From a virus, in the IMG/VR virus record IMGVR_UViG_3300045922_000718, positions 1 through 22,445 of that record: a stretch of 22,445 nt of DNA. One strand, written 5' to 3'. The notes below the pieces were generated by a model. It saw only the letters and a list, made by a program, of their open reading frames with translations. It was not told the origin of the DNA and did no database searches. A program made the translations under genes and the position numbers. This document shows positions 1,032 through 14,920 of the stretch, in pieces (position 1 is the stretch's first letter; the number at the start of each line of letters is the position of its first letter).

Positions 1032-1247
1032 ATGTTACTATTACCATTTACCATTGATCAAAATTCACCGCAAACTCTAGCATTGTTTCCAAATCGAGTT
1101 GTGTGCCAAGGCAGTCGAATATTTGATGCTGTTGAATGGGCTCACACAAACATTCAGCAAAAATGGAGTCGACGAACCAATATTTTTTACTTTGAGAGCA
1201 TCGATGATGCCATGCTGTTCAAATTGAAATTTGCAGGAGTAAAATAA
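1032..1247 (+). CDS. Small hypothetical phage protein with C-terminal DDAMLFKLKF motif (71 aa)
   Basis: Unknown function. A TTG at 1020 is an alternative start four codons upstream; the frame is closed by TAA at 999-1001. No convincing ribosome binding site precedes either start. The body is mixed polar and hydrophobic. The C-terminus, FYFESIDDAMLFKLKFAGVK, has an acidic pair followed by a FKLxF core, a pattern that recurs at the C-termini of the proteins at 1249-1635 and 6124-6390. The ORF ends at TAA 1245-1247, and the ribosome binding site of the next gene sits inside its last codons, so the two are probably cotranslated. The 5' boundary is uncertain. Confidence 0.5.
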   Translation: MLLLPFTIDQNSPQTLALFPNRVVCQGSRIFDAVEWAHTNIQQKWSRRTNIFYFESIDDAMLFKLKFAGVK

Positions 1248-1248
1248 T

Positions 1249-1635
1249 ATGATCAACATTCATTATGGTAGAATTTCTTTTTATTTGATTTGCACTTTAT
1301 TTGTATATTGCAGTTTTATATCTTTGCTATTTACAATAATTGGGATTGATTACAGCCTTGAATATGCTATAATAGCAGTCATGATAGCCGTTGGTCTTAC
1401 TATAAGCCAGTTTGTAATTTCAATGTTACAACATTGGGAACAGTTTACTAGAATCTATCTTGAAATACCCACTGATTATAACTGCAAAGACATTACAAAA
1501 AAGTTGAATATTGAAAACAAAGACGTAAAACTCAACGTATATCTTAACAGAATCTATAGCAAAAGACTTGATGATTTCTTATACTTGAAGTTGTGTTTTG
1601 GTGGCAAATTAAACGCACATAAAAATGTATTTTGA
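1249..1635 (+). CDS. Putative membrane protein with two transmembrane segments (128 aa)
   Basis: I do not recognise a family. The ATG at 1249 follows AGGAG at 1235-1239 with 9 bases of spacing. Two strongly hydrophobic stretches lie at about residues 8-30 (ISFYLICTLFVYCSFISLLF) and 37-60 (YAIIAVMIAVGLTISQFVISM), predicting a two-pass inner-membrane anchor. A soluble tail of roughly 65 residues follows, rich in Lys and Asn. The tail ends with RLDDFLYLKLCFGGKLN, which resembles the acid-pair plus (F/L)KLxF ending of the upstream 71-residue protein. Ends with TGA 1633-1635, 18 bases before the UvdE start. Function unknown; a role at the host membrane is inference only. Confidence 0.65.
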   Translation: MINIHYGRISFYLICTLFVYCSFISLLFTIIGIDYSLEYAIIAVMIAVGLTISQFVISMLQHWEQFTRIYLEIPTDYNCKDITKKLNIENKDVKLNVYLNRIYSKRLDDFLYLKLCFGGKLNAHKNVF

Positions 1636-1653
1636 GTTTGAAGATATTACAAA

Positions 1654-2661
1654 ATGACCCAAGATCATAGAATAGGCTTTGCTTGCAAAATAGTAGCGGA
1701 TGTTGAAGATAAAAAACAAAAGATGCTTTTGGAAAGCAAACATAATACCAAAAGCACCACCATCACTGCATTACAAAAACTCAACCATAGTCAGAAGATT
1801 GAAAAACTTTATGGTATTTTGAGTCAAAACGCTGAAATCTTAGCCAATCAAATGACACTAGTGGGATCTTGGCCGAAACCCAGACGTATGATGCGAATAT
1901 CATCTGATATATGGCCGGGTTTTACACATGAAGAAATATCCACTTTGTATCAAGAACCGATATTACAACAAGCAATGAGTATGGTGAATCATGCCGGTGA
2001 TATTGCCAAACAGCACGACATTCGTTTAAGTATGCATCCTGGACAATTCACCATGTTAGTAAGCCATACCAAATCAACAGTTGACAGAGCAATTGAAGAT
2101 TTAGAATACCATGCAGAAATATTTCGTCGCATGGGTATTTCACATACGGATCAACGCACCGAAATCAACATTCATGGTGGAGCAAAAGTTAAAAATTTCT
2201 ATGAACAATTTGTCACCAACTGGCAACGTTTGTCGCATGACACACAGCAATGGATCAGTGTGGAAAATGATGAATTTTCATATGGCGTTGATGATTTGCT
2301 ACCACTAGCTGATCATGTGAAAATATGTGTGGATGTGCATCATCATTGGATACATGAAGAATGTTATTTGTCTCCTGATGACGATATGATAGATAAAATC
2401 ATAAGCAGTTGGAGAGGAGCTCGTCCTGAAATGCACGTGAGTACCAGCCACGAATCTGTTGACAGCAATGGAAAAGAAATACCACAATTCACCACGCATG
2501 ATGTGAAAAAATCTCTTTGGCGCAAGCATTCGGATTTTTGCTATAACCCCAAACTCAACGACTATTTTCTTTCATTTTTGCCACAATTTGATTTAATGGT
2601 TGAAGCCAAAATGAAAAATATCGCAGCAAAGCAACTATTGGAATCTTATAATAATCGATAA
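1654..2661 (+). CDS. uvdE: UV damage endonuclease, UvdE family
   Basis: UvdE enzymes are metal-dependent TIM-barrel endonucleases. They nick DNA just 5' of UV photoproducts and some other lesions, starting alternative excision repair. The 335-residue protein has the family signatures in order: IGFAC (7-11), RISSD (81-85), MHPGQF (127-132), NIHGG (172-176), VENDEF (203-208), VDVHHHW (226-232), MHVS (260-263) and DLMVEAK (313-319). The His, Glu and Asp residues in HPGQ, IHGG, ENDE, DVHHHW and VEAK correspond to the metal-binding set of the family. Length is typical and the protein looks intact. Start at ATG 1654 is preceded by AAGATATT, only a weak ribosome binding site. The same frame continues open after the TAA for 127 codons into an FkbM remnant. 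Confidence 0.95.
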   Translation: MTQDHRIGFACKIVADVEDKKQKMLLESKHNTKSTTITALQKLNHSQKIEKLYGILSQNAEILANQMTLVGSWPKPRRMMRISSDIWPGFTHEEISTLYQEPILQQAMSMVNHAGDIAKQHDIRLSMHPGQFTMLVSHTKSTVDRAIEDLEYHAEIFRRMGISHTDQRTEINIHGGAKVKNFYEQFVTNWQRLSHDTQQWISVENDEFSYGVDDLLPLADHVKICVDVHHHWIHEECYLSPDDDMIDKIISSWRGARPEMHVSTSHESVDSNGKEIPQFTTHDVKKSLWRKHSDFCYNPKLNDYFLSFLPQFDLMVEAKMKNIAAKQLLESYNNR

Positions 2662-3045
2662 AAATTAATATTCACAAACAACACACAGTATCAAAGGCAA
2701 GTTTTGGAAATTGCTGCGGGTCACGAAAATAAAACAACATTCATTTCAAACAAAACATATTCTGGATTAAACCATATTAATTCAGATGGGATCTCTGTTC
2801 AAATGAACAAGTTAGATGATTTGAATTTATCTTTTCCTAATTTTATAAAAATAGACATGGAATGCTTCAAACTTCATACCCTTAAGAGATTGGAAAACAC
2901 TCTCATAATTCATAAGCCAATGATTCAACTGGAATTGCAGAAGCCATTGTTGGAATCATTTAATACTCCTATAGAAGATGTTTGGCTTTGGCTGAATAAT
3001 TTGGGCCAACTATATGACTCAAAAAATAGACTATGGGAGAAGTGA
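2662..3045 (+). pseudogene. FkbM-type methyltransferase remnant, C-terminal half only
   Basis: The frame directly after the UvdE stop encodes a recognisable C-terminal half of an FkbM-like SAM-dependent methyltransferase. QMNKLDDLNL matches the family's LDdl motif, NFIKIDMECFKLHTLKRL matches its fiKiDvEGfE..vLkg motif, and KPMIQLEL matches its Pvi.lE motif. The normal Gly of the IDxEG core is Cys here. The N-terminal SAM-binding Gly-rich region is missing, and no ATG precedes the homology; a TTG at 2704 is the only nearby start. The remnant is in the same frame as UvdE, separated only by TAA 2659-2661. I read it as a decayed gene trimmed by deletion, although a short expressed protein from TTG 2704 (113 aa) cannot be excluded. 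Ends at TGA 3043-3045. Confidence 0.6.
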
Positions 3046-3056
3046 GATTCTCACTT
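3040..3056. repeat. 7-bp inverted repeat with 3-nt loop at the end of the FkbM remnant
   Basis: Arms AAGTGAG (3040-3046) and CTCACTT (3050-3056) are perfect complements around ATT. The stop codon of the remnant lies in the left arm. The + strand continues with AAAACCC and has no T-run, so it does not look like a classical intrinsic terminator. The rest of the 122-base gap up to 3167 holds only AT-rich sequence and the TATAAATA box. Confidence 0.45.
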
Positions 3057-3160
3057 AAAACCCAACGATACCCCTGGAGAACAAGATTGGTTTGCAAAAC
3101 CCATATAAGAACAAACATATTTCTTAGCTGATTTCATTGATTATATTTTTGAAATATTAT

Positions 3161-3168
3161 TATAAATA
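3161..3168 (+). promoter_or_regulatory. T4-late-promoter-like box TATAAATA
   Basis: An exact match to the T4 late promoter consensus lies at the junction of the only intergenic gap before the large repeat protein. Its last A is the A of the ATG at 3168. With T4 geometry (box at -13 to -6) transcription would start at 3174, the A of the second ATG of the next gene. In this AT-rich sequence a few chance matches are expected, so the position rather than the match itself is the support. Confidence 0.4.
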
Positions 3169-5801
3169 TGATTATGAACCAAGAGATCGAAACACTGAAA
3201 AAACTCGCCGGGTTAAAAGAACATTGGCATGATAAGCTCAAGGTGGCATTGGGTGAAGAAGAGCCACAAACACCTGAAATCACTAAAACTTCCCATAGAC
3301 ACTGGCTGGACAAACTCAAGTCAGCTGCTAATGCTGAATGGTATGACAAAGCCACTGAAGAGATGATTCAACGCATCCAAGCGGGTGAATTTGAAATGGA
3401 AGTGGTCAATGATCTAGCTCGGCAGTATGCCTCTATGAATGGTGGATCTCATGATGCTTTCCAATTTGCTGTGGATGCACTGGGTCGCCGTGCTTGGCAA
3501 ATGGGCTTGAATGATGCCAATGACAACAGCAAGCCACGTTATCAGATTCAACCACAGGATTCACACAGAGAGCCATTAGCAGAATATCACATGGATCATA
3601 TGCAGAATCCAGGTAGACGTTCCAGTGAAAAATGCCTGAATCTTCATCGTCAAGCACAACAAGATGATGCATATGGCAGAGTAGCCAAAGGTCAATTGGA
3701 AGATGAAATGAAAACGCATGGGTTTGATAACCTGGATCTATTCCTAAAAACCTGTGAAAGAGTTGTCAATCAAGATGAGTCATTGAGGGATGAATTATCC
3801 CCAAAGAAGGCCCAAGAAGCGCTCATGCTTTGGCGTAAAAATAAGATTTTTGAATTGATGAATTTTGTTGAAGGCTATGGTTTCAAAAGTGTTCAGGATC
3901 TTTTAAATTATATAAAAACAATCAAAGAAAAAAATTTAAATGAAAGTCACAGCGATGAAGAAATTGCTGCAATGAGCAGAGAAGAACGCATCAAAGAAGC
4001 AGCAGCAACTCTTTCAGAAGTTTGGAGTGATGATGAATTCCGAGGCACGTGGGCGCAAGCAGTTTCGGCCATTGCTCGTCAATATAAGATATCGTCAGAT
4101 GAGCTATTAGCAGAATATGATAGGATCACCTTTCCTGGTAAAGGTAAAAAAAGAGATCCAAACCCCCAAACCGTTGAGCAAGTGATTAATAAATGGAATG
4201 AATACAAAGAAAAACACTTTAACAAAGAAAACTTATGGCGTTGGGAAGAATTAAACAAGATAGCACAAGACCACGGCTATTGGAATCTCACTGATTTTCT
4301 AAAAAGAGTTGCCAAACTAAGTGATAAAAAAATCATTGGTATCAAAGAATCCTCTTACAAAACTGTTGAGCCCACCACCAAAACTGCGTTGGCTTATTTG
4401 AAAGATTATAACAAGTGGGTGGAAGATCCCGATAGCATGCCCCCTAAAGAAAAGGGAGAACATGGCTTCTGCATGCATCGCACTATGCGAGCACATGGCT
4501 ATCGCGATCCCAATGCATTTGCGCAGGCATGTAAACAAAAACTAGCACAAAGCAAGAATACAAAAATTCAAAAAAATGCAATGGAAGAAGAATTTGCTTC
4601 AGCAGTCAATGAAGTGGGAGACATTAGACCCAATTTGATAATGAGCGGCGAATATGGTCCGCGTAAAGGTTTGGAAGGTCCATTCACAATGAAAAATGGT
4701 CAAGTGGTTTATTATGATGCCAAAGAAGGCAAGTATTGGGACCCCAAAACCGATATGTATATTCCCAATGAAGAAATTCATAAAATGCATGAAATGATGG
4801 AATCAAAAAGTGATATGACATCTCTGGCAACATTGCGTGACATTTTGGAATCTTTTGAAGAAGAACAGCATCAAAATAATATATACGGATCTCGAGATTT
4901 CAGCAGCAATGTCAAGGATTTCTATAATCACGTTCGTGAATTTCCTCATATGCTAACAGGCGACAAAGAAGCTTGGCGTAAACACGATGTGGTTGTAACT
5001 ATAAGACATCCATATGGTCATACAGAAGTTCGACATGGATCAACTGCTGATATTCACAGATGGATGCCAGAAACAGAAGTTAAAAGGTACGGTCAAAACT
5101 TTGCCAATTATGAACTATCACTGGATCCACCATATCCAATGAATGAGAAACACATCAGCAAAATTCAAGAAGCCGAGGTAGTGCCAATGCATTCAAAACC
5201 TGCTTCGGGAATGGAAGTGCCAAAAGGTTATGCTTCTTTCTATGTGCAAGAAATTTCTCCCACTGTTTCAAAAATCATCGGTGTAAAACCCAATGGAGTT
5301 GAAGTGGAAATATCAAGAACTTCCACTGAAGGAGCACATGCTCTTGCCAAGCACTACAATTCAGGTGGCAGAGGTGGGGTGCAATCAGTATCATTAATGT
5401 CTGCTTTTGGCACGCCAGTGATGCAAGAGTTAGATGCAAATGGCTATCACATGATGGAAAAGCCAGGTTATTTCCAAGAAGTGGTCAATGACAAAAAATA
5501 TCATGTTCCTGTTTCAGCTATTCGTAAATTAGAACAAAAAATGAACATGAAAATTCCTGTAAAGCCTATGAAAGACGCTGTAAAACAATTCCGAGACGGA
5601 AATTTTTACCCACAGGGAGATAGAATCAGTGATTTGGAAACTGTAATTCTAATTCATCCTGGTGAAAAAAACAAATGGGGAGAGGAAACAATCAAACCTG
5701 GATCAGTATTCCTAGCGGACCGAGGCGGCGCCAAAAAATACTATAGAGCATGGGCCCTGATTCCTGATTATTCTGCTACTGTGTTGAACTTGAAAAAATA
5801 A
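3168..5801 (+). CDS. Large hypothetical protein with degenerate helical repeats, possibly virion-associated (877 aa)
   Basis: I do not recognise a named family. The N-terminus begins with LKKLAGLKEHW. A degenerate helical unit, xx(H/Y)G(F/Y)xxxxxF/Lhxxh, occurs four times, centred on GF 185-186, GF 238-239, GY 370-371 and GY 444-445. Three copies are preceded by a helix of the type A-x-x-x-hL-x-x-W/Y. A second pair of related segments carries (L/I)ARQY at 83-87 and 302-306. Residues 480-880 look like a mixed alpha/beta region with GPFTMKNGQVVYYDAKEG (503-520), a beta-rich YVQEISPTVSKIIGVKPNG patch (692-710) and a C-terminus ending YYRAWALIPDYSATVLNLKK. There is no signal peptide or membrane segment. 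Start may be ATG 3168 or ATG 3174; neither has a ribosome binding site. Size and the late-type promoter suggest a structural or packaged protein, but that is inference. Confidence 0.8.
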   Translation: MIMNQEIETLKKLAGLKEHWHDKLKVALGEEEPQTPEITKTSHRHWLDKLKSAANAEWYDKATEEMIQRIQAGEFEMEVVNDLARQYASMNGGSHDAFQFAVDALGRRAWQMGLNDANDNSKPRYQIQPQDSHREPLAEYHMDHMQNPGRRSSEKCLNLHRQAQQDDAYGRVAKGQLEDEMKTHGFDNLDLFLKTCERVVNQDESLRDELSPKKAQEALMLWRKNKIFELMNFVEGYGFKSVQDLLNYIKTIKEKNLNESHSDEEIAAMSREERIKEAAATLSEVWSDDEFRGTWAQAVSAIARQYKISSDELLAEYDRITFPGKGKKRDPNPQTVEQVINKWNEYKEKHFNKENLWRWEELNKIAQDHGYWNLTDFLKRVAKLSDKKIIGIKESSYKTVEPTTKTALAYLKDYNKWVEDPDSMPPKEKGEHGFCMHRTMRAHGYRDPNAFAQACKQKLAQSKNTKIQKNAMEEEFASAVNEVGDIRPNLIMSGEYGPRKGLEGPFTMKNGQVVYYDAKEGKYWDPKTDMYIPNEEIHKMHEMMESKSDMTSLATLRDILESFEEEQHQNNIYGSRDFSSNVKDFYNHVREFPHMLTGDKEAWRKHDVVVTIRHPYGHTEVRHGSTADIHRWMPETEVKRYGQNFANYELSLDPPYPMNEKHISKIQEAEVVPMHSKPASGMEVPKGYASFYVQEISPTVSKIIGVKPNGVEVEISRTSTEGAHALAKHYNSGGRGGVQSVSLMSAFGTPVMQELDANGYHMMEKPGYFQEVVNDKKYHVPVSAIRKLEQKMNMKIPVKPMKDAVKQFRDGNFYPQGDRISDLETVILIHPGEKNKWGEETIKPGSVFLADRGGAKKYYRAWALIPDYSATVLNLKK

Positions 5802-6402: not shown

Positions 6403-8667
6403 ATGTATGTAGATGCCTACACAGAACGAGACTGGGATGAAATTTGGGTTGCAGAACGTGGTCCTGACGGCAAACGACGTCTAATCACATATCCAAAAAA
6501 GCTGTTGTTTTATTATGAGGATCCAAAAGGTCGATACACTTCGATTTTTGGAACCAAATTGTCAAGGTTCAAAACCACTTCACAAAAAGCATTTCAAAAA
6601 GAGCTCAAGCTTTGCAGCAAGAGAACTTTTGAGTCAGATATCAATCCTGTTTTCCGCTGCTTGAGTGAAAACTACTTGGGCCAGCCAGCACCCAAGCTCA
6701 ATATAGCATTGTTTGACATTGAAGTGGATATGGATCCCAAGCGCGGTTATCCATCAACTACTGATCCATTTGCCGCAATAACTGCTATTTCTGTTTATTT
6801 AAATTGGGAAAATCGAGTGATCACACTAGTTCTTCCTCCCAAAACTATAAAAGATGAAAATGGCAAAGTTGTACCACTCACTCTAGAACTTGCCGAAGCC
6901 ATTTGCAACTCGTTTCCCCACACTTATTTGTGTGAAACCGAACAACAGTTGTTGGAAGTGTTTTTAGAACTCATACAAGAAGCGGACGTGCTGAGTGGTT
7001 GGAATTCAACCGGATACGATATTCCCTATCTAGTCAATCGCATTGAATTGGTTTTATCCAAAGATCACACTCGAAAATTTTGTTTGTGGAATCAATTGCC
7101 GCGCAAGCGTCTTTACACTAAATTTGGTAAGGAAAATATCACATACGACACAATTGGTCGCGTGCATTTGGATTATTTGGATTTGTATATGAAACATGCA
7201 ATGCAACAGTTGCATTCATACAGATTGGATTTCGTTGCTGAATTGGAAGTAGGTGCAAACAAAACGCCGTATGAAGGGTCGTTGTATGACTTATATCACA
7301 AAGATTTTCGCAAGTTTGTAGAGTATAACCGTCAAGACGTACATCTACTAGTGCAAATTGATCAAAAACTCAAATACATTGAACTAGCCAATCAACTAGC
7401 TCACGCCAATGGCGTGTTGTTACAAAACACACTGGGATCAGTGGTTTTGATTGACCAAGCAATTGTAAACGAGTCCCATGCATTGGGATTGATTGTTCCG
7501 GATCGCAAGCGTGAATTGACAGATGATTCAACGTTGGAAACAGAAGAAGAAACTGTAGTGGGCGCATATGTTGCTGAACCCAAAGTGGGCATACATGACT
7601 GGGTGGGGGCATGCGATATTAACTCACTGTATCCATCTGTGTTACGATCATTTAATATGGGGCCCGATACAATCGTAGCACAGATTCGGCCCACGCTTAC
7701 TAATGAATTCGTAAAGAAAAAAGCTGGCGAAGTTGACAAAGCCACAGACATTTGGAACGAAATCTTTTCCTGCTTGGAATATGATGAAGTGCTAAATCAA
7801 TCCAATGTGGATTTGATTGTGGATTTTGAAAACGGCGATGTCAAACAAATGAAAGCGTACGAAATTTACAATTGGATCTTCAATGCAAAACCACAATTGT
7901 GCATTACTGCCAATGGCACAATTTTTTCTTATGAAAGAAAAGGCGTTATCCCGCAAATTCTCGAGCGCTGGTATTCCGAGAGAAAGGACATGCAGAAAAA
8001 GAGCAAAAACCTTTTTGCCGAAGCTAAAGCATGTGAAGATGAGGAACAAAAACAAAAACTATTAGTTAATGCAGAGTTCTGGGACAAACAACAATATATT
8101 AGAAAAATTCAGTTGAACTCACTGTATGGCGCACTGCTTAATCCGGCATGTAAAATGTATGACGATCGCATTGGCCAATCAGTTACTTTAAGCGGGCGGC
8201 GTATTGTCAAACACATGTGTTCGTGTGTTAATGAAATTCTCACTGGTGATTACAACTACAAAGGCGATGCAATCGTGTATGGAGACACTGATTCAGTAAC
8301 AGGCAACACATTAGTTAAGTGTTTGATAAACAATGAAGAGAGAGTTTTTCCCATCGAAGAACTATTTGATATGATTTCCTATAAATTTGCTCGGGGGCAT
8401 AAAGAATATGCAGTAGATCCTTCTATTAAAGTTCTTACTTACGACCCCAAGCTCAAGAAACCTGTTTACAGAACAATAGATTACGTGTATCGTCACAACA
8501 CTGAAAAAGAACTGTTTGAAATTGAACTCGAAGATGGTAAAAAAGTTATAGTCACGGAAGATCACAGCGTAATGGTTGAACGAAATGGAATCTTAATTGA
8601 ATGCAAACCCAATGAATTAAAAGAAGAGGACAAATTTATTGTAGTTAATTACGACGATATACACTAG
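6403..8667 (+). CDS. DNA polymerase family B, N-terminal half fused to split-intein N-fragment
   Basis: Replicative DNA polymerase related to T4 gp43. Proofreading exonuclease motifs: FDIEVD with D105/E107 (Exo I), GWNSTGYDIPYL with N201/D206 (Exo II), YNRQD with Y308/D312 (Exo III). Polymerase motifs: DINSLYPS at 405-412 (A), KIQLNSLYG at 568-576 (B), and YGDTD at 626-630 (the first part of motif C). Immediately after DTD the sequence turns into an intein, SVTGNTLVKC (631-640), which runs to the stop TAG 8665-8667. So this gene makes 630 residues of polymerase plus 124 of intein. The remaining polymerase is encoded from 8757. Without trans-splicing the product lacks the end of motif C, palm and thumb. 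No clear ribosome binding site precedes ATG 6403; ATG 6403 was chosen because it follows the TAG of the previous gene by 12 bases. Confidence 0.95.
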   Translation: MYVDAYTERDWDEIWVAERGPDGKRRLITYPKKLLFYYEDPKGRYTSIFGTKLSRFKTTSQKAFQKELKLCSKRTFESDINPVFRCLSENYLGQPAPKLNIALFDIEVDMDPKRGYPSTTDPFAAITAISVYLNWENRVITLVLPPKTIKDENGKVVPLTLELAEAICNSFPHTYLCETEQQLLEVFLELIQEADVLSGWNSTGYDIPYLVNRIELVLSKDHTRKFCLWNQLPRKRLYTKFGKENITYDTIGRVHLDYLDLYMKHAMQQLHSYRLDFVAELEVGANKTPYEGSLYDLYHKDFRKFVEYNRQDVHLLVQIDQKLKYIELANQLAHANGVLLQNTLGSVVLIDQAIVNESHALGLIVPDRKRELTDDSTLETEEETVVGAYVAEPKVGIHDWVGACDINSLYPSVLRSFNMGPDTIVAQIRPTLTNEFVKKKAGEVDKATDIWNEIFSCLEYDEVLNQSNVDLIVDFENGDVKQMKAYEIYNWIFNAKPQLCITANGTIFSYERKGVIPQILERWYSERKDMQKKSKNLFAEAKACEDEEQKQKLLVNAEFWDKQQYIRKIQLNSLYGALLNPACKMYDDRIGQSVTLSGRRIVKHMCSCVNEILTGDYNYKGDAIVYGDTDSVTGNTLVKCLINNEERVFPIEELFDMISYKFARGHKEYAVDPSIKVLTYDPKLKKPVYRTIDYVYRHNTEKELFEIELEDGKKVIVTEDHSVMVERNGILIECKPNELKEEDKFIVVNYDDIH
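8293..8664 (+). other. Split intein N-fragment (IntN, 124 codons)
   Basis: The intein begins at Ser (TCA 8293) directly after the polymerase residues YGDTD. Block A is SVTGNTLVKC with Ser as the first nucleophile, of the kind seen in family B polymerase inteins. Block B is KKVIVTEDHSVMV, with the TxxH motif as TEDH at protein residues 718-721. The usual beta-rich Hint body lies between them (IKVLTYDPKLKKPVYRTI and so on). No LAGLIDADG or HNH endonuclease domain is present. The fragment ends at TAG 8665. Confidence 0.92.
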
Positions 8668-8760
8668 CACTATGATTTGATAAATCATATTCAATATGCT
8701 AAGTTAATGCTTGAATGTTTTGATCAAAATTTAGTGTGTAGTAAGATTGGATTGCTATGA
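8665..8760 (+). other. Short spacer between the polymerase halves, open in the IntN frame past the amber stop
   Basis: After TAG 8665-8667 the same frame continues for 30 sense codons (8668-8757) and ends at TGA 8758-8760. That stop overlaps the ATG 8757 of the C-half gene as ATGA, the junction style used for many gene pairs here. The C-half is in a different frame, which is itself closed upstream by TAA 8742-8744. Joining the two halves would therefore need both stop readthrough and a frameshift. No homing endonuclease is present in the gap. Confidence 0.6.
8671..8689. repeat. 8-bp inverted repeat (hairpin) after the IntN stop
   Basis: Arms TATGATTT (8671-8678) and AAATCATA (8682-8689) pair perfectly around GAT. 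The hairpin starts 3 bases after the amber stop. It is AT-only apart from one G-C pair in each arm and has no T-run after it, so it is a weak stem rather than a standard terminator. Confidence 0.5.
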
Positions 8761-8867
8761 AAATTAAAAAAATAACTAATTTAGGAAAACAAAAAAAGCC
8801 AGTTTACGACATTGGGGTAAACAAGGATACACCGTATTTCTTTGGGAATGGTATATTACTTCATAAT
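8757..8867 (+). other. Split intein C-fragment (IntC, 37 codons)
   Basis: Contains block F (PVYDIGVNKDTPYFF) and block G (NGILLHN). The penultimate His and terminal Asn are intact, and the +1 extein residue is Ser. Length is typical of natural IntC pieces. Together with the N-fragment all residues expected for splicing chemistry (Ser1, TxxH, His-Asn, Ser+1) are present. Confidence 0.92.
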
Positions 8868-9803
8868 TCTGTTTATTTCTCTGCATGGCCACTACGTTAC
8901 AAAGAAGAGTTTGCTGCTTTTGATTGGAGCAAAGAAAATATTATTAAGTTGTATGACAACATTGCAGACGCAATGAATGAAACATGGTCTGCTCAACTCA
9001 AAAGTGAATTCAATGTGCCCGAAGATCGATGTGTGATCAAAGCCGGTAGAGAGTTAGTTGCATCCAAAGGCCTGTTTATTACCAAAAAACGCTATGCTGT
9101 GTTGATATTTGATAAAGAAGGCGTACGCGAAGATAACAATGGCAAACCTGGTAAGATCAAAGCCATGGGGTTGGATCTCAAACGATCTGATACACCAGAA
9201 CGCATTCAGCAATTCCTAGAAGGAATTCTAACTCGTGTGCTGCAAGGTGCAACTGAAAGTCAAATCATTGACGATATTAAAAAATTCCGAGCAGAATTTG
9301 CCCAATGGGCGGCTTGGGAAAAAGGTGCGCCCAAAAGAGTCAACAATATTACTGCATATCGCGAACGTGATGAAAACAAACGCAACATCGAACTCAATAT
9401 GCAATTGTATTCTAAATTGGCTGCATCTAAAGATCCCACTGAAACCAAAAAAATTCAATCGGAAATCGACAAATTGAAAAAGCTTACGTTGCCTGGCCAC
9501 GTTGCTGCTTCATTAAATTGGAACAAACTTCGCAAGCTCAACAACGATGCCATTTCCATGCCAATTCAAGACGGACAGAAGGTTGTTGTTTGCAAGCTCA
9601 AGCCCAACATTTGGAACATGAATTCAATTGCGTATCCAGTTGACGAAATGCATTTGCCAGATTGGTTCAAATCATTGCCATTTGATGTTGATGGAATGGA
9701 ACAAACAGTTTTAGATGGAAAGCTGGAAAATCTACTGGGTGTGTTGAAATGGGATTTAAATTCGTCTAAACTCACTGAAATCGACGAGCTGTTTGAATTT
9801 TAA
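8757..9803 (+). CDS. Split-intein C-fragment fused to DNA polymerase family B, C-terminal half
   Basis: The first 37 residues are an intein C-fragment ending LLHN. From Ser (TCT 8868) the polymerase resumes with SVYFSAWP, completing motif C as YGDTD plus SVYFS. The polymerase part has 311 residues. It carries ITKKRYAVLIF, the KKRY element that contacts the primer template, thumb-domain helices, and the C-terminus EIDELFEF. That ending resembles the clamp-binding tail of T4-type polymerases (RB69 ends LFDMFDF). Both exteins add up to 941 residues, close to T4 gp43 (898). Start ATG 8757 is the only ATG upstream of the intein homology, because TAA 8742-8744 closes the frame. The ribosome binding site is poor (GATTGG), so initiation may depend on translation arriving from upstream. 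Confidence 0.93.
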   Translation: MKIKKITNLGKQKKPVYDIGVNKDTPYFFGNGILLHNSVYFSAWPLRYKEEFAAFDWSKENIIKLYDNIADAMNETWSAQLKSEFNVPEDRCVIKAGRELVASKGLFITKKRYAVLIFDKEGVREDNNGKPGKIKAMGLDLKRSDTPERIQQFLEGILTRVLQGATESQIIDDIKKFRAEFAQWAAWEKGAPKRVNNITAYRERDENKRNIELNMQLYSKLAASKDPTETKKIQSEIDKLKKLTLPGHVAASLNWNKLRKLNNDAISMPIQDGQKVVVCKLKPNIWNMNSIAYPVDEMHLPDWFKSLPFDVDGMEQTVLDGKLENLLGVLKWDLNSSKLTEIDELFEF

Positions 9804-10605: not shown

Positions 10606-10805
10606 TCAAATCTTCGCCATTTGCACTTCATGTGTCACATGAAGTGCAAATAAGTGGCAATGTAGTTATAAATTACTCTCTACACAAATCATTGGATTGT
10701 GGGGATCGAGTATGGATAAAAGCGGAGCATGTGTTATTGGGTCATCAAGAGTTTAATACAATAACAAATGTCATTAAAAAATCAACAAAGGCCAAAACCA
10801 AATGA
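10602..10805 (+). CDS. Small hypothetical ORF between clamp and dpdA (67 aa, GTG start)
   Basis: GTG 10602 overlaps the clamp stop as GTGA, and the ORF ends in TGA 10803-10805, overlapping the dpdA ATG 10802. Tight overlap at both ends supports a real coupled gene, but there is no ATG in the frame and a 33-bp palindrome occupies codons 6-17. The C-terminal half (DCGDRVWIKAEHVLLGHQEF, residues about 32-51) looks like a folded small domain with a Lys-rich tail. No family is recognised. The alternative reading is that 10606-10801 is a regulatory intergenic region. Confidence 0.5.
   Translation: MIKSSPFALHVSHEVQISGNVVINYSLHKSLDCGDRVWIKAEHVLLGHQEFNTITNVIKKSTKAKTK
10619..10651. repeat. 33-bp near-perfect palindrome after the clamp gene
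   Basis: Left arm ATTTGCACTTCATGTG (10619-10634) and right arm CACATGAAGTGCAAAT (10636-10651) are exact reverse complements of 16 bases around a single T (10635). It starts 13 bases after the clamp stop. As RNA it would form a stem of about 14 bp with a tiny loop; as DNA it is a symmetric binding site or cruciform. No T-run follows on either strand. Confidence 0.85.
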
Positions 10806-12406
10806 GCGTTAGGACTGACCCCATTCAAACCATCGACTTGACATTGGGCAACGACACTGCGGATGCAATGCGCGAGCATGCAATGTTTTTGCCGTCTTGC
10901 TCCAGCTTTTATGTAAAAACCATATCAGGTGCGCACGGCAACAAGCGCATGCCCAAAGGACTGGTAAATGGCATGGATAGCTTAAATTACATGCTAAAAG
11001 ATCGTGGCTTGTTTTATTACAAATACAATTTATATTCAGCAGGCCATGCTATTTTAGACTTAGAAAAATCTAAAAAATCCGAAAGCATGATATGGAACAG
11101 ATCACCCGGTACCCTTGTGTTAGGCGACTCGGGTGGATATCAAATTGCATCCGGCACAGGCCATGTTAGCTTTGATTGGGGTGACTTAAAGAGTGACAAA
11201 AGCAACACCACTCGCAAGTTGGTGTTGGAGTGGCAAGAAGCATTGTGCGACGCTGCAATGACATTAGATGTGCCCACTCGTGCAATTGGAAACGCGGAAA
11301 AAACCGGCATCACTTCATTCCAGCAATGTTTGGACGCTACTTTGATCAATTTGAATTACATTGCCAACAATCGCACTGGACCAGAAAAATGTCGATTCTT
11401 AAATGTGTTGCAGGGTCGAACAGAAGAAGAAACTGACATTTGGTATGACACTGTGAAGGATTATGACTTTGAAGGTTGGGCATTCGCGGGCGTCCATGCA
11501 TATGGCCTTTACACAACCTTAAAGCGTTTGATCAAATTGCGCGACGATGGCAAACTCAATCGCACACAAAATTGGATTCATATTTTGGGTAACACTCGAT
11601 TGTTAAATGCTGGACCATTTACGCAAATACAAAGAGCTATACGCAAACACATGAACATCCCCGACTTCATTGTGAGTTATGACTCTGCTTCGTCGTTCCT
11701 TGCCGTAGCTAAAGGACAAGGTTATACTGGTTTTACTATGAGCAACTCTTACTCAGATGTGAAAAAACTAATAGTGAAAAAAGGTACCGAGTCTGAAGTG
11801 GACGATTTGTTTGATTTTGCTACTGGTGAAAGCATTTATGAACGCCGAGTACAATCACGTTCGCGCTTTAATTATAACATGGATGCAATGCCAGACGACA
11901 AGATGAAAAAGTATGTGGGCAGCGATGTGCTGGACGTGCGCTTCCCATGGCAGTCTCCACTTGCTGAAAGAATCTTGATGAGTGACATTTGCGTAAGCAA
12001 CGACCCAAAAAAGAAAACATCTTGGGATACGTTTTCTTACGCATTGATAATGTGCCACAATGTTTATGTTCAAATTCGTGGAGTACAGGAAGCAATTCGC
12101 ATTTGGGATCTACCAGGCGAAATGTGCTTGGGTTGGATGGATCTAGAAGCATATGAAGCACGAGAAACAGTGAAAGAGATTTTGGACTTGGCATTTGTAT
12201 CGCAAACACCATTCTCAGATATTGAAAAACGAGTTCTGGGCGTAAAAAGAAAGTTGCTAAATTCGTTTGCCGGCACTACAATGGGCAATAAGAAAACTGC
12301 TGAGGAAGAATCTTGGAACAGTATGACTGGCAATGATATAACAATCGAAGAACCAGAATTACTTGCTGAAATTGTAGATGATAGATCAGAAAACAACAAT
12401 GAATGA
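10802..12406 (+). CDS. dpdA: DpdA-like 7-deazaguanine DNA transglycosylase (TGT superfamily), 534 aa
   Basis: DpdA enzymes are relatives of tRNA-guanine transglycosylase that swap guanine in DNA for a 7-deazaguanine base, giving phage DNA resistance to restriction. TGT-fold landmarks are present in order: LGDSGGYQIASG (107-118, with D109 as the general-base Asp of the DSGGFQ motif), NVLQGRTEEE (201-210, equivalent of the VQGG loop), GWAFAGVHAYG (225-235), IHILGNTR (259-266), and VSYDSAS (291-297, with D294 at the nucleophile position). The canonical C-terminal zinc site of tRNA enzymes is not visible, consistent with a DNA enzyme. The C-terminal 150 residues are phage-specific, and the tail is acidic. 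ATG 10802 overlaps the previous ORF as ATGA. QueD-like and FolE genes follow in the same direction. Confidence 0.85.
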   Translation: MSVRTDPIQTIDLTLGNDTADAMREHAMFLPSCSSFYVKTISGAHGNKRMPKGLVNGMDSLNYMLKDRGLFYYKYNLYSAGHAILDLEKSKKSESMIWNRSPGTLVLGDSGGYQIASGTGHVSFDWGDLKSDKSNTTRKLVLEWQEALCDAAMTLDVPTRAIGNAEKTGITSFQQCLDATLINLNYIANNRTGPEKCRFLNVLQGRTEEETDIWYDTVKDYDFEGWAFAGVHAYGLYTTLKRLIKLRDDGKLNRTQNWIHILGNTRLLNAGPFTQIQRAIRKHMNIPDFIVSYDSASSFLAVAKGQGYTGFTMSNSYSDVKKLIVKKGTESEVDDLFDFATGESIYERRVQSRSRFNYNMDAMPDDKMKKYVGSDVLDVRFPWQSPLAERILMSDICVSNDPKKKTSWDTFSYALIMCHNVYVQIRGVQEAIRIWDLPGEMCLGWMDLEAYEARETVKEILDLAFVSQTPFSDIEKRVLGVKRKLLNSFAGTTMGNKKTAEEESWNSMTGNDITIEEPELLAEIVDDRSENNNE

Positions 12407-14224: not shown

Positions 14225-14920
14225 ATGGCATTTCAAAAAACAAAAACAGATCCTAATCTAGGACTGGCTGTACACAAAAACTTACTTGTCAAGGGCATTG
14301 AAACACCAGGAGTAAACTCTGGTTATAGGATGGATCGAAAGGAACAAATTGAATTTATTGAAGAGAAATTCCGCGAAATTATGACCCAAGGATTGGGGTT
14401 GGATTTGCGAGATGACTCTTTGATTGAAACTCCCAAACGAGTTGCAAAAATGTTTATCAACGAAATTTTCTGGGGCTTGGAAGTGGATGCTTTTCCCAAA
14501 GCCACCACTGTTGATAATAAAATGAATTATGACGAAATGGTGTGCGAGCGCAATATTATAGTTCAATCATTTTGCGAACATCATTTATTGCCAATTAATG
14601 GAGGGGCAACTGTTGCTTACATTCCCAACAAAAAGGTTTTGGGTTTAAGCAAAATGAATCGAATTGTAGAATATTTTTCTCGTCGTCCACAAATACAAGA
14701 ACGTCTCACGCAGCAAATTGCACTAACATTGCAGTTTATTTTAGAAACAGACAACGTTGCAGTGTTAATTGATGCCAAGCATGATTGCGTAAGAATGCGA
14801 GGTGTAAGTGATCCTTGCTCTGACACTGTAACTAATTTCTTAGGCGGGTGCTTCAAAACAGACTTTGCGCTGCGCTCTGAATTTATGAGCATTGCAACTG
14901 CTGGACTGTTTAAAAACTAA
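14225..14920 (+). CDS. folE: GTP cyclohydrolase I (FolE), 231 aa
   Basis: Converts GTP to dihydroneopterin triphosphate, the first step of both folate and 7-deazaguanine (preQ0) synthesis. Motifs: ETPKRVAKMF (68-77), QSFCEHHLLP (114-123) giving zinc ligands Cys117 and His120 and catalytic His119, GLSKMNRIVEYFSRRPQIQE (140-159), and KHDCVRMRG (185-193) with the third zinc ligand Cys188. Length and motifs are complete and the enzyme looks active. ATG 14225 follows GGAAGG. In a phage with dpdA and a QueD-like gene in the same strand block, the likely role is making precursor for DNA modification rather than folate. QueE and QueC, needed to finish preQ0, are not in the window. Confidence 0.96.
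   Translation: MAFQKTKTDPNLGLAVHKNLLVKGIETPGVNSGYRMDRKEQIEFIEEKFREIMTQGLGLDLRDDSLIETPKRVAKMFINEIFWGLEVDAFPKATTVDNKMNYDEMVCERNIIVQSFCEHHLLPINGGATVAYIPNKKVLGLSKMNRIVEYFSRRPQIQERLTQQIALTLQFILETDNVAVLIDAKHDCVRMRGVSDPCSDTVTNFLGGCFKTDFALRSEFMSIATAGLFKN

What the first reader, a model, noticed from the sequence alone, without database searches (positions are those of the whole stretch)
8293..8867. DNA polymerase gene broken inside its catalytic motif by a naturally split intein
Seen in sequence: the N-gene reads polymerase up to YGDTD and then Ser-VTGNTLVKC with a TEDH block B. Ninety bases after its stop, a separate gene starts with a 37-residue fragment ending LLHN and resumes polymerase with SVYFSAWP. 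Ser1, TxxH, His-Asn and Ser+1 are all intact, so the two products should trans-splice to restore YGDTDSVYFS. Established: this insertion site hosts inteins in archaeal and giant-virus family B polymerases. Split inteins in fractured phage genes (gp41 helicase, NrdJ, IMPDH types) were found in environmental sequences. Inference: a T4-type replicative polymerase whose activity depends on trans-splicing, without any endonuclease in the gap, is an unusual arrangement and may control when replication starts.
Basis: partly seen in the sequence, partly recalled or inferred. Interest (0 to 1): 0.92.

Follow-up and report, generated by a model that had tools for sequence, protein, structure and literature searches.

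The report
Phage DNA polymerase with split intein
A phage copies its DNA with a polymerase encoded as two genes, each carrying half of a self-excising protein splice element (a split intein) that should stitch the halves together; this arrangement is real but already known from other phages, so it is a good new example rather than a new kind of system.

Summary
At 8293-8867 a T4-type family B polymerase is broken inside motif C (YGDTD^S) by the two halves of a class-1 Ser1/Ser+1 intein, 124 and 37 residues, separated by 89 bp with no endonuclease gene. Both halves pass curated intein cut-offs (TIGR01445, TIGR01443), every catalytic residue is present, and a model of the N half matches the solved Aes123 PolB1 split intein best. 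Protein trans-splicing giving a 941-residue polymerase is by far the likeliest mechanism.
It is not unusual. The same site holds split inteins in Aeromonas, Pseudomonas, Tenacibaculum, Campylobacter and Vibrio phages; MIJ3 is published and Aes123 is biochemically characterised. Among 65 distinct relatives I found 38 split with an ORF-sized (over 800 bp) gap, 18 split with a short gap like the window, and 9 contiguous. Aeromonas phage Aes516 is also endonuclease-free. Nothing supports control of replication timing.
The relatives are more interesting than the window. They show endonuclease decay, apparent re-fusion of split inteins into contiguous ones, recent horizontal transfer, a sister intein two residues away, and two contigs with tandem inteins separated by a two-residue extein (TD).

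The parts
6403..8292 (+). N-extein: family B (T4 gp43-type) DNA polymerase, exonuclease domain and polymerase up to motif C YGDTD (630 aa)
   Evidence: PHROG 262 E 2e-146, Pfam DNA_pol_B and DNA_pol_B_exo1; T4/RB69-type structures E about 1e-38
8293..8664 (+). N-intein (124 aa), Ser1, motif NX His, TEDH block
   Evidence: Pfam PF14890 E 5e-10, TIGR01445 above cut-off, AlphaFold model pLDDT 82 with best match 9hth Aes123 PolB1 split intein
8665..8667 (+). TAG stop of the N gene
   Evidence: direct reading; TAG also ends other genes of the window, so there is no sign of TAG recoding
8668..8756 (+). 89-bp gap, 27% G+C, no endonuclease gene, no intron, no promoter or terminator above chance; no detectable homology to the endonuclease or to the leader peptides of relatives
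8757..8867 (+). C-intein (37 aa including start Met), VYDIG block F and His-Asn
   Evidence: TIGR01443 above cut-off; 67% identical to the C-intein of L097
8868..9803 (+). C-extein: rest of the polymerase from Ser+1 (SVYFSAWP...), 311 aa plus stop
   Evidence: PHROG 1918 E 6e-47 and PHROG 262; 48.9% identity over the whole C gene to PA5oct/Paride polymerase

Best explanation
This is a naturally split, class-1 Ser1/Ser+1 intein inserted in motif C of a T4-type family B phage polymerase (site YGDTD^S). The two gene products bind through the intein halves and the HINT fold forms. Splicing then proceeds by N-O acyl shift at Ser1, branched ester on Ser+1 and Asn cyclisation, giving a continuous 941-residue polymerase with motif C YGDTDSVYFS. 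The free-standing homing endonuclease that sits in the gap of most relatives is absent here, so the element probably lost its own means of spreading and persists because only a precise removal of both halves would restore the gene. Shown: sequence, motifs, fold of the N half, conservation, relatives with the same architecture. Inferred: that splicing occurs in this phage, that an endonuclease was once present, that the split has no regulatory role.
For: Both halves pass curated intein models. All splicing residues are intact, and those of the N half are the invariant columns of the family. The N-half model matches solved inteins, Aes123 PolB1 first. Joining at the predicted junction gives the YGDTDS.YF sequence seen uninterrupted in 75 of 80 nearest polymerase relatives. 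The same two-gene organisation at the same site is in PA5oct/Paride/MIJ3, Aes123 and Aes516, PTm1, VPALA and many IMG/VR contigs. Endonuclease-free split relatives L010/L142 show dN 0.027 against dS 0.36 in the N-intein, so such inteins stay under selection for function. Aes123 PolB1 is shown to trans-splice (PMC11923092).
Against: No splicing data or read coverage for this contig. The gap shows no recognisable endonuclease remnant, so loss of an endonuclease in this lineage is inferred from relatives only. The C gene has only a weak ribosome-binding site (read by eye).
Confidence: 0.92

Rival explanations
1. The contig carries a contiguous intein, and the break is a sequencing or assembly error.
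For: The intein region (575 nt) is nearly as long as the contiguous intein of relatives L135-L139 (573 nt); the N frame has only the TAG before staying open to 8758.
Against: Two independent errors would be needed (the TAG and a frameshift near 8750). The C gene starts at an ATG close to where the C-inteins of many relatives start, and split relatives with gaps of 0-200 bp are common. The gap peptide does not resemble the linker of the contiguous forms.
Confidence: 0.04
2. The two halves work without splicing, as a non-covalently assembled two-subunit polymerase like gp43A/gp43B of Aeromonas phage 25.
For: Split gp43 of phage 25 is active as two co-purifying chains (PMC2988022).
Against: The break lies inside the catalytic motif and both chains carry intact intein halves whose catalytic residues are the most conserved positions; unspliced, 124 residues would hang from the active site.
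Confidence: 0.03
3. The gene is dead: a decaying intein in a non-functional polymerase, with replication done by another enzyme.
For: The contig is 22 kb and may be a fragment of a larger genome, so another polymerase cannot be excluded; the mobile endonuclease is missing.
Against: All polymerase and intein motifs are intact and both frames are full length; the neighbouring genes follow the order seen in PA5oct-like phages.
Confidence: 0.04
4. The endonuclease-free split is kept because trans-splicing regulates the onset of replication.
Against: No promoter, terminator or RNA element in the gap. Relatives switch between split, split with endonuclease, contiguous and empty, which suits a mobile element, not a conserved switch.
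Confidence: 0.05

Closest known systems
Pseudomonas jumbo phages PA5oct / Paride / MIJ3 split PolB intein (MIJ3: PMC6892783)
   Same: same site YGDTD^S, same two-gene split, N-intein 45-46% identical including flank, C gene 49% identical, similar gene order downstream
   Different: they carry a free-standing homing endonuclease gene (560 aa in Paride) in the gap, and the C gene has an N-terminal leader before the C-intein
Aeromonas phage Aes123 PolB1 split intein (PDB 9hth; PMC11923092) and Aes516
   Same: T4-like PolB motif C, DTD^S site, Ser1/Ser+1 chemistry; best fold match. Aes516 also lacks the endonuclease
   Different: N-intein about 35% identical; Aes123 has a VSR-type endonuclease gene in the gap; the window intein has two non-catalytic cysteines
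IMG/VR contig L097 (3300008095_000110) PolB split intein
   Same: closest intein in the tree (support 99); C-intein 67% identical
   Different: inserted two residues upstream, YGD^TDS with Thr+1, and has an endonuclease-like gene in the gap
Nanoarchaeum equitans split PolB intein (NeqN/NeqC, 5oxz)
   Same: naturally split Ser1 intein in a family B polymerase; weaker fold match
   Different: archaeal, thermophilic, only distantly similar in sequence
PolB16 OarG split intein (PMC10189870)
   Same: PolB gene, Ser1/Ser+1, motif NX histidine
   Different: atypically split after 15 residues; the window is split at the usual endonuclease position

Membership tests
Class 1 intein, Ser1/Ser+1 (cysteine-independent) subgroup | HINT fold | tested here: met
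   Pfam PF14890, TIGR01445, TIGR01443; N-half model against 9hth, TM 0.70. The C half was not modelled.
Class 1 intein, Ser1/Ser+1 (cysteine-independent) subgroup | Ser1, block B T..H, penultimate His, terminal Asn, Ser/Thr +1 | tested here: met
Class 1 intein, Ser1/Ser+1 (cysteine-independent) subgroup | motif NX histidine preceded by Arg/Lys (PMC10189870) | tested here: met
   VYRH, H68, invariant in 13 relatives
Naturally split intein | two separate genes ending and starting at the canonical endonuclease position (about 100 and 40 aa) | tested here: met
   124 + 37 aa, split between block B/N4 and block F
Naturally split intein | trans-splicing demonstrated | not testable with these tools
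   needs expression
Phage PolB motif C split intein allele (Aes123 PolB1 / MIJ3 type) | inserted at DTD^S of motif C in a T4-type PolB | tested here: met
Fractured gene with free-standing homing endonuclease (Dassa et al. 2009 arrangement) | endonuclease ORF between the two halves | tested here: not met
   the 89-bp gap has no endonuclease ORF and no match to the endonuclease profile
T4-type family B polymerase (gp43) | exonuclease and polymerase domains with motifs A, B, C | tested here: met
   DINSLYPS, NSLYG, YGDTD read in the sequence

The most novel reading that the evidence does not exclude
The window intein is one stage of a reversible cycle at polymerase motif C: fractured intein with endonuclease, then endonuclease loss, then re-fusion into a contiguous intein. 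Its insertion point has also moved two residues relative to its sister intein in L097. Overlapping sites two residues apart would then exchange inteins and can even be occupied together (tandem inteins with a two-residue extein in L122 and L144).
Probability: 0.3. Interest if true: 0.6.

Novelty: new member of a known kind. Interest (0 to 1): 0.34.

Why it matters
As a single case it adds one more endonuclease-free, Ser1/Ser+1 split intein, a rare and useful class for protein engineering, with a canonical split and only two non-catalytic cysteines. The family around it matters more. Its members are caught at every stage (with endonuclease, with endonuclease remnants, with short gap, apparently re-fused, tandem), so how inteins become split, stay split and become whole again can be tested with a comparative set.

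Tried and rejected
(1) The gap as a decayed endonuclease: no match of any frame to a profile of the gap endonucleases of relatives. (2) The gap as remnant of the leader peptide of relatives' C genes (my reading by eye of LVCSKIGLL): the score was no better than shuffled sequence, 1341 of 2000 shuffles equal or better, so dropped. (3) TAG recoding with readthrough: TAG ends other genes of the window and there is no tRNA gene in it. (4) Group I or II intron instead of an intein: no Rfam match in the window. (5) A separate promoter for the C gene: nothing above shuffles. (6) Cellular origin: only distant archaeal inteins in genome contigs, none seen at this polymerase site. (7) Close relatives of the window for a direct dN/dS: none; L097 is saturated at synonymous sites (its C-intein figure in that call is spoiled by a stop codon at the edge and is replaced). 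(8) Literature on tandem inteins two residues apart: nothing found in the held library with the terms tried.

Full report
What is there. The window is a 22,445-base IMG/VR virus record. Genes 6403-8667 and 8757-9803 encode the two parts of a T4-type family B polymerase (PHROG 262 and 1918, Pfam DNA_pol_B). The N gene runs to motif C...AIVYGDTD, and then reads SVTGNTLVKC...VTEDHSVMV...NYDDIH before a TAG. After 89 bases a second gene starts with MKIKKITNLGKQKKPVYDIGVNKDTPYFFGNGILLHN and continues with SVYFSAWP.

Is it an intein? Yes. The N half passes Pfam Intein_splicing (E 5.4e-10) and TIGR01445 intein_Nterm (38.5 bits, cut-off 24.5). The C half passes TIGR01443 intein_Cterm (24.3 bits, cut-off 15.6). 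In an alignment of 13 relatives the invariant positions of the N half are the catalytic ones and their block B neighbours: Ser1, His68 (motif NX of Ser1 inteins, PMC10189870) and T88, D90, H91, S92 of block B. With 45 sequences these stay invariant. An AlphaFold model of the N half (pLDDT 82) matches the crystal structure of the Aes123 PolB1 split intein first (9hth, E 3e-6, TM 0.70), followed by other inteins.

What splicing would do. Removing the intein and joining DTD to SVYF restores the uninterrupted motif; 75 of the 80 nearest polymerase relatives in IMG/VR have it uninterrupted. The product would be 941 residues. No splicing was observed; this step rests on homology with Aes123 PolB1, which does trans-splice (PMC11923092).

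How unusual is it? Not very. tblastn of the N-intein finds 48 phage records. Those inspected include split forms with an endonuclease gene in the gap (Paride; Aes123; PTm1; CP21; VPALA), a split form without one (Aes516) and contiguous forms (Salicola phage SCTP-2, Campylobacter phage CC_R7). [quoted passage not shown] A scan of IMG/VR gave 169 relatives, of which the best 80 were read. Among 65 distinct inteins, 38 are split with a gap of more than 800 bp, 18 are split with a short gap (about 200 bp or less, the window included) and 9 are contiguous. In the loci examined, the long gaps hold an endonuclease-like ORF of roughly 230-580 codons.

The empty gap. Several short gaps hold clear remnants of the endonuclease: L010 and L142 keep its C-terminal part, L100 keeps a 69-codon frame with its end, and L163 keeps both ends with the middle deleted. 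The gap of the window has no such remnant; neither the endonuclease profile nor the leader-peptide profile matches it better than shuffled sequence. Endonuclease loss in this lineage is therefore inferred from relatives, not shown.

Mobility and selection. L158 (endonuclease present) and L163 (deleted) have nearly identical inteins (N-intein dS 0.015, C-intein 0) in polymerases whose C-exteins differ at dS about 1.75, a sign of recent horizontal transfer followed by endonuclease deletion. L104/L105 show a similar contrast. Endonuclease-free L010 and L142 have N-intein dN 0.027 against dS 0.36, so the split inteins remain under purifying selection without the endonuclease.

Two sites and tandem inteins. 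The relatives use two sites two residues apart: YGDTD^S (Ser+1, as in the window) and YGD^TDS (Thr+1). The closest intein to the window's, L097, sits at the other site (tree support 99; C-intein 67% identical). In L122 and L144 both sites are filled: an intein, then only Thr-Asp, then a second intein (contiguous in L122, split in L144). I found nothing on this in the held papers with the terms tried, so I cannot say that it is undescribed.

Apparent re-fusion. The contiguous intein of L135 contains, inside its linker, the start Met and leader of the separate C gene of its split sister L143 (MKKEFTNILNA(T/S)SIEQVKEYTDAFLKL...). In the intein tree L135 lies within split forms. L105 (contiguous) and L104 (split) are a second such pair. 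The direction, split to contiguous, is the more economical reading but was not tested formally.

Verdict. The claims of rarity and of control over replication timing are not supported. This is a new member of a known kind.

Noticed in passing
L122:3001-3978 and L144 (N gene 1195-3834, C gene from about 3956): Tandem inteins in polymerase motif C separated by a two-residue extein: YGD-[intein]-TD-[intein]-SCYF. In L122 both are contiguous; in L144 the first is contiguous and the second split.
   Followed up: partly
L135 (intein 2986-3558) against L143; L105 against L104: Contiguous inteins whose linker contains the start Met and leader of the C gene of a split sister: apparent re-fusion of a split intein after endonuclease deletion.
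   Followed up: partly
L158 and L163: Nearly identical split inteins in strongly diverged polymerases, one with the endonuclease gene and one with its middle deleted: recent horizontal transfer and endonuclease loss.
   Followed up: partly
window 8293-8867 against L097: Sister inteins inserted two residues apart (YGDTD^S and YGD^TDS).
   Followed up: partly
window 10802-12406: 534-aa protein with a GDSGGYQI motif that by eye resembles tRNA-guanine/DpdA-type transglycosylases; no Pfam, PHROG, PADLOC or PDB sequence match; conserved in PA5oct-like phages, Sinorhizobium phage Phosso and a Vibrio phage. A GTP cyclohydrolase I gene lies at 14225-14920.
   Followed up: partly
window 2704-3045: 113-aa ORF that by eye looks like a fragment of an FkbM-type methyltransferase.
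   Followed up: no
window 1654-2661: UvdE-type UV endonuclease gene in a phage contig.
   Followed up: no
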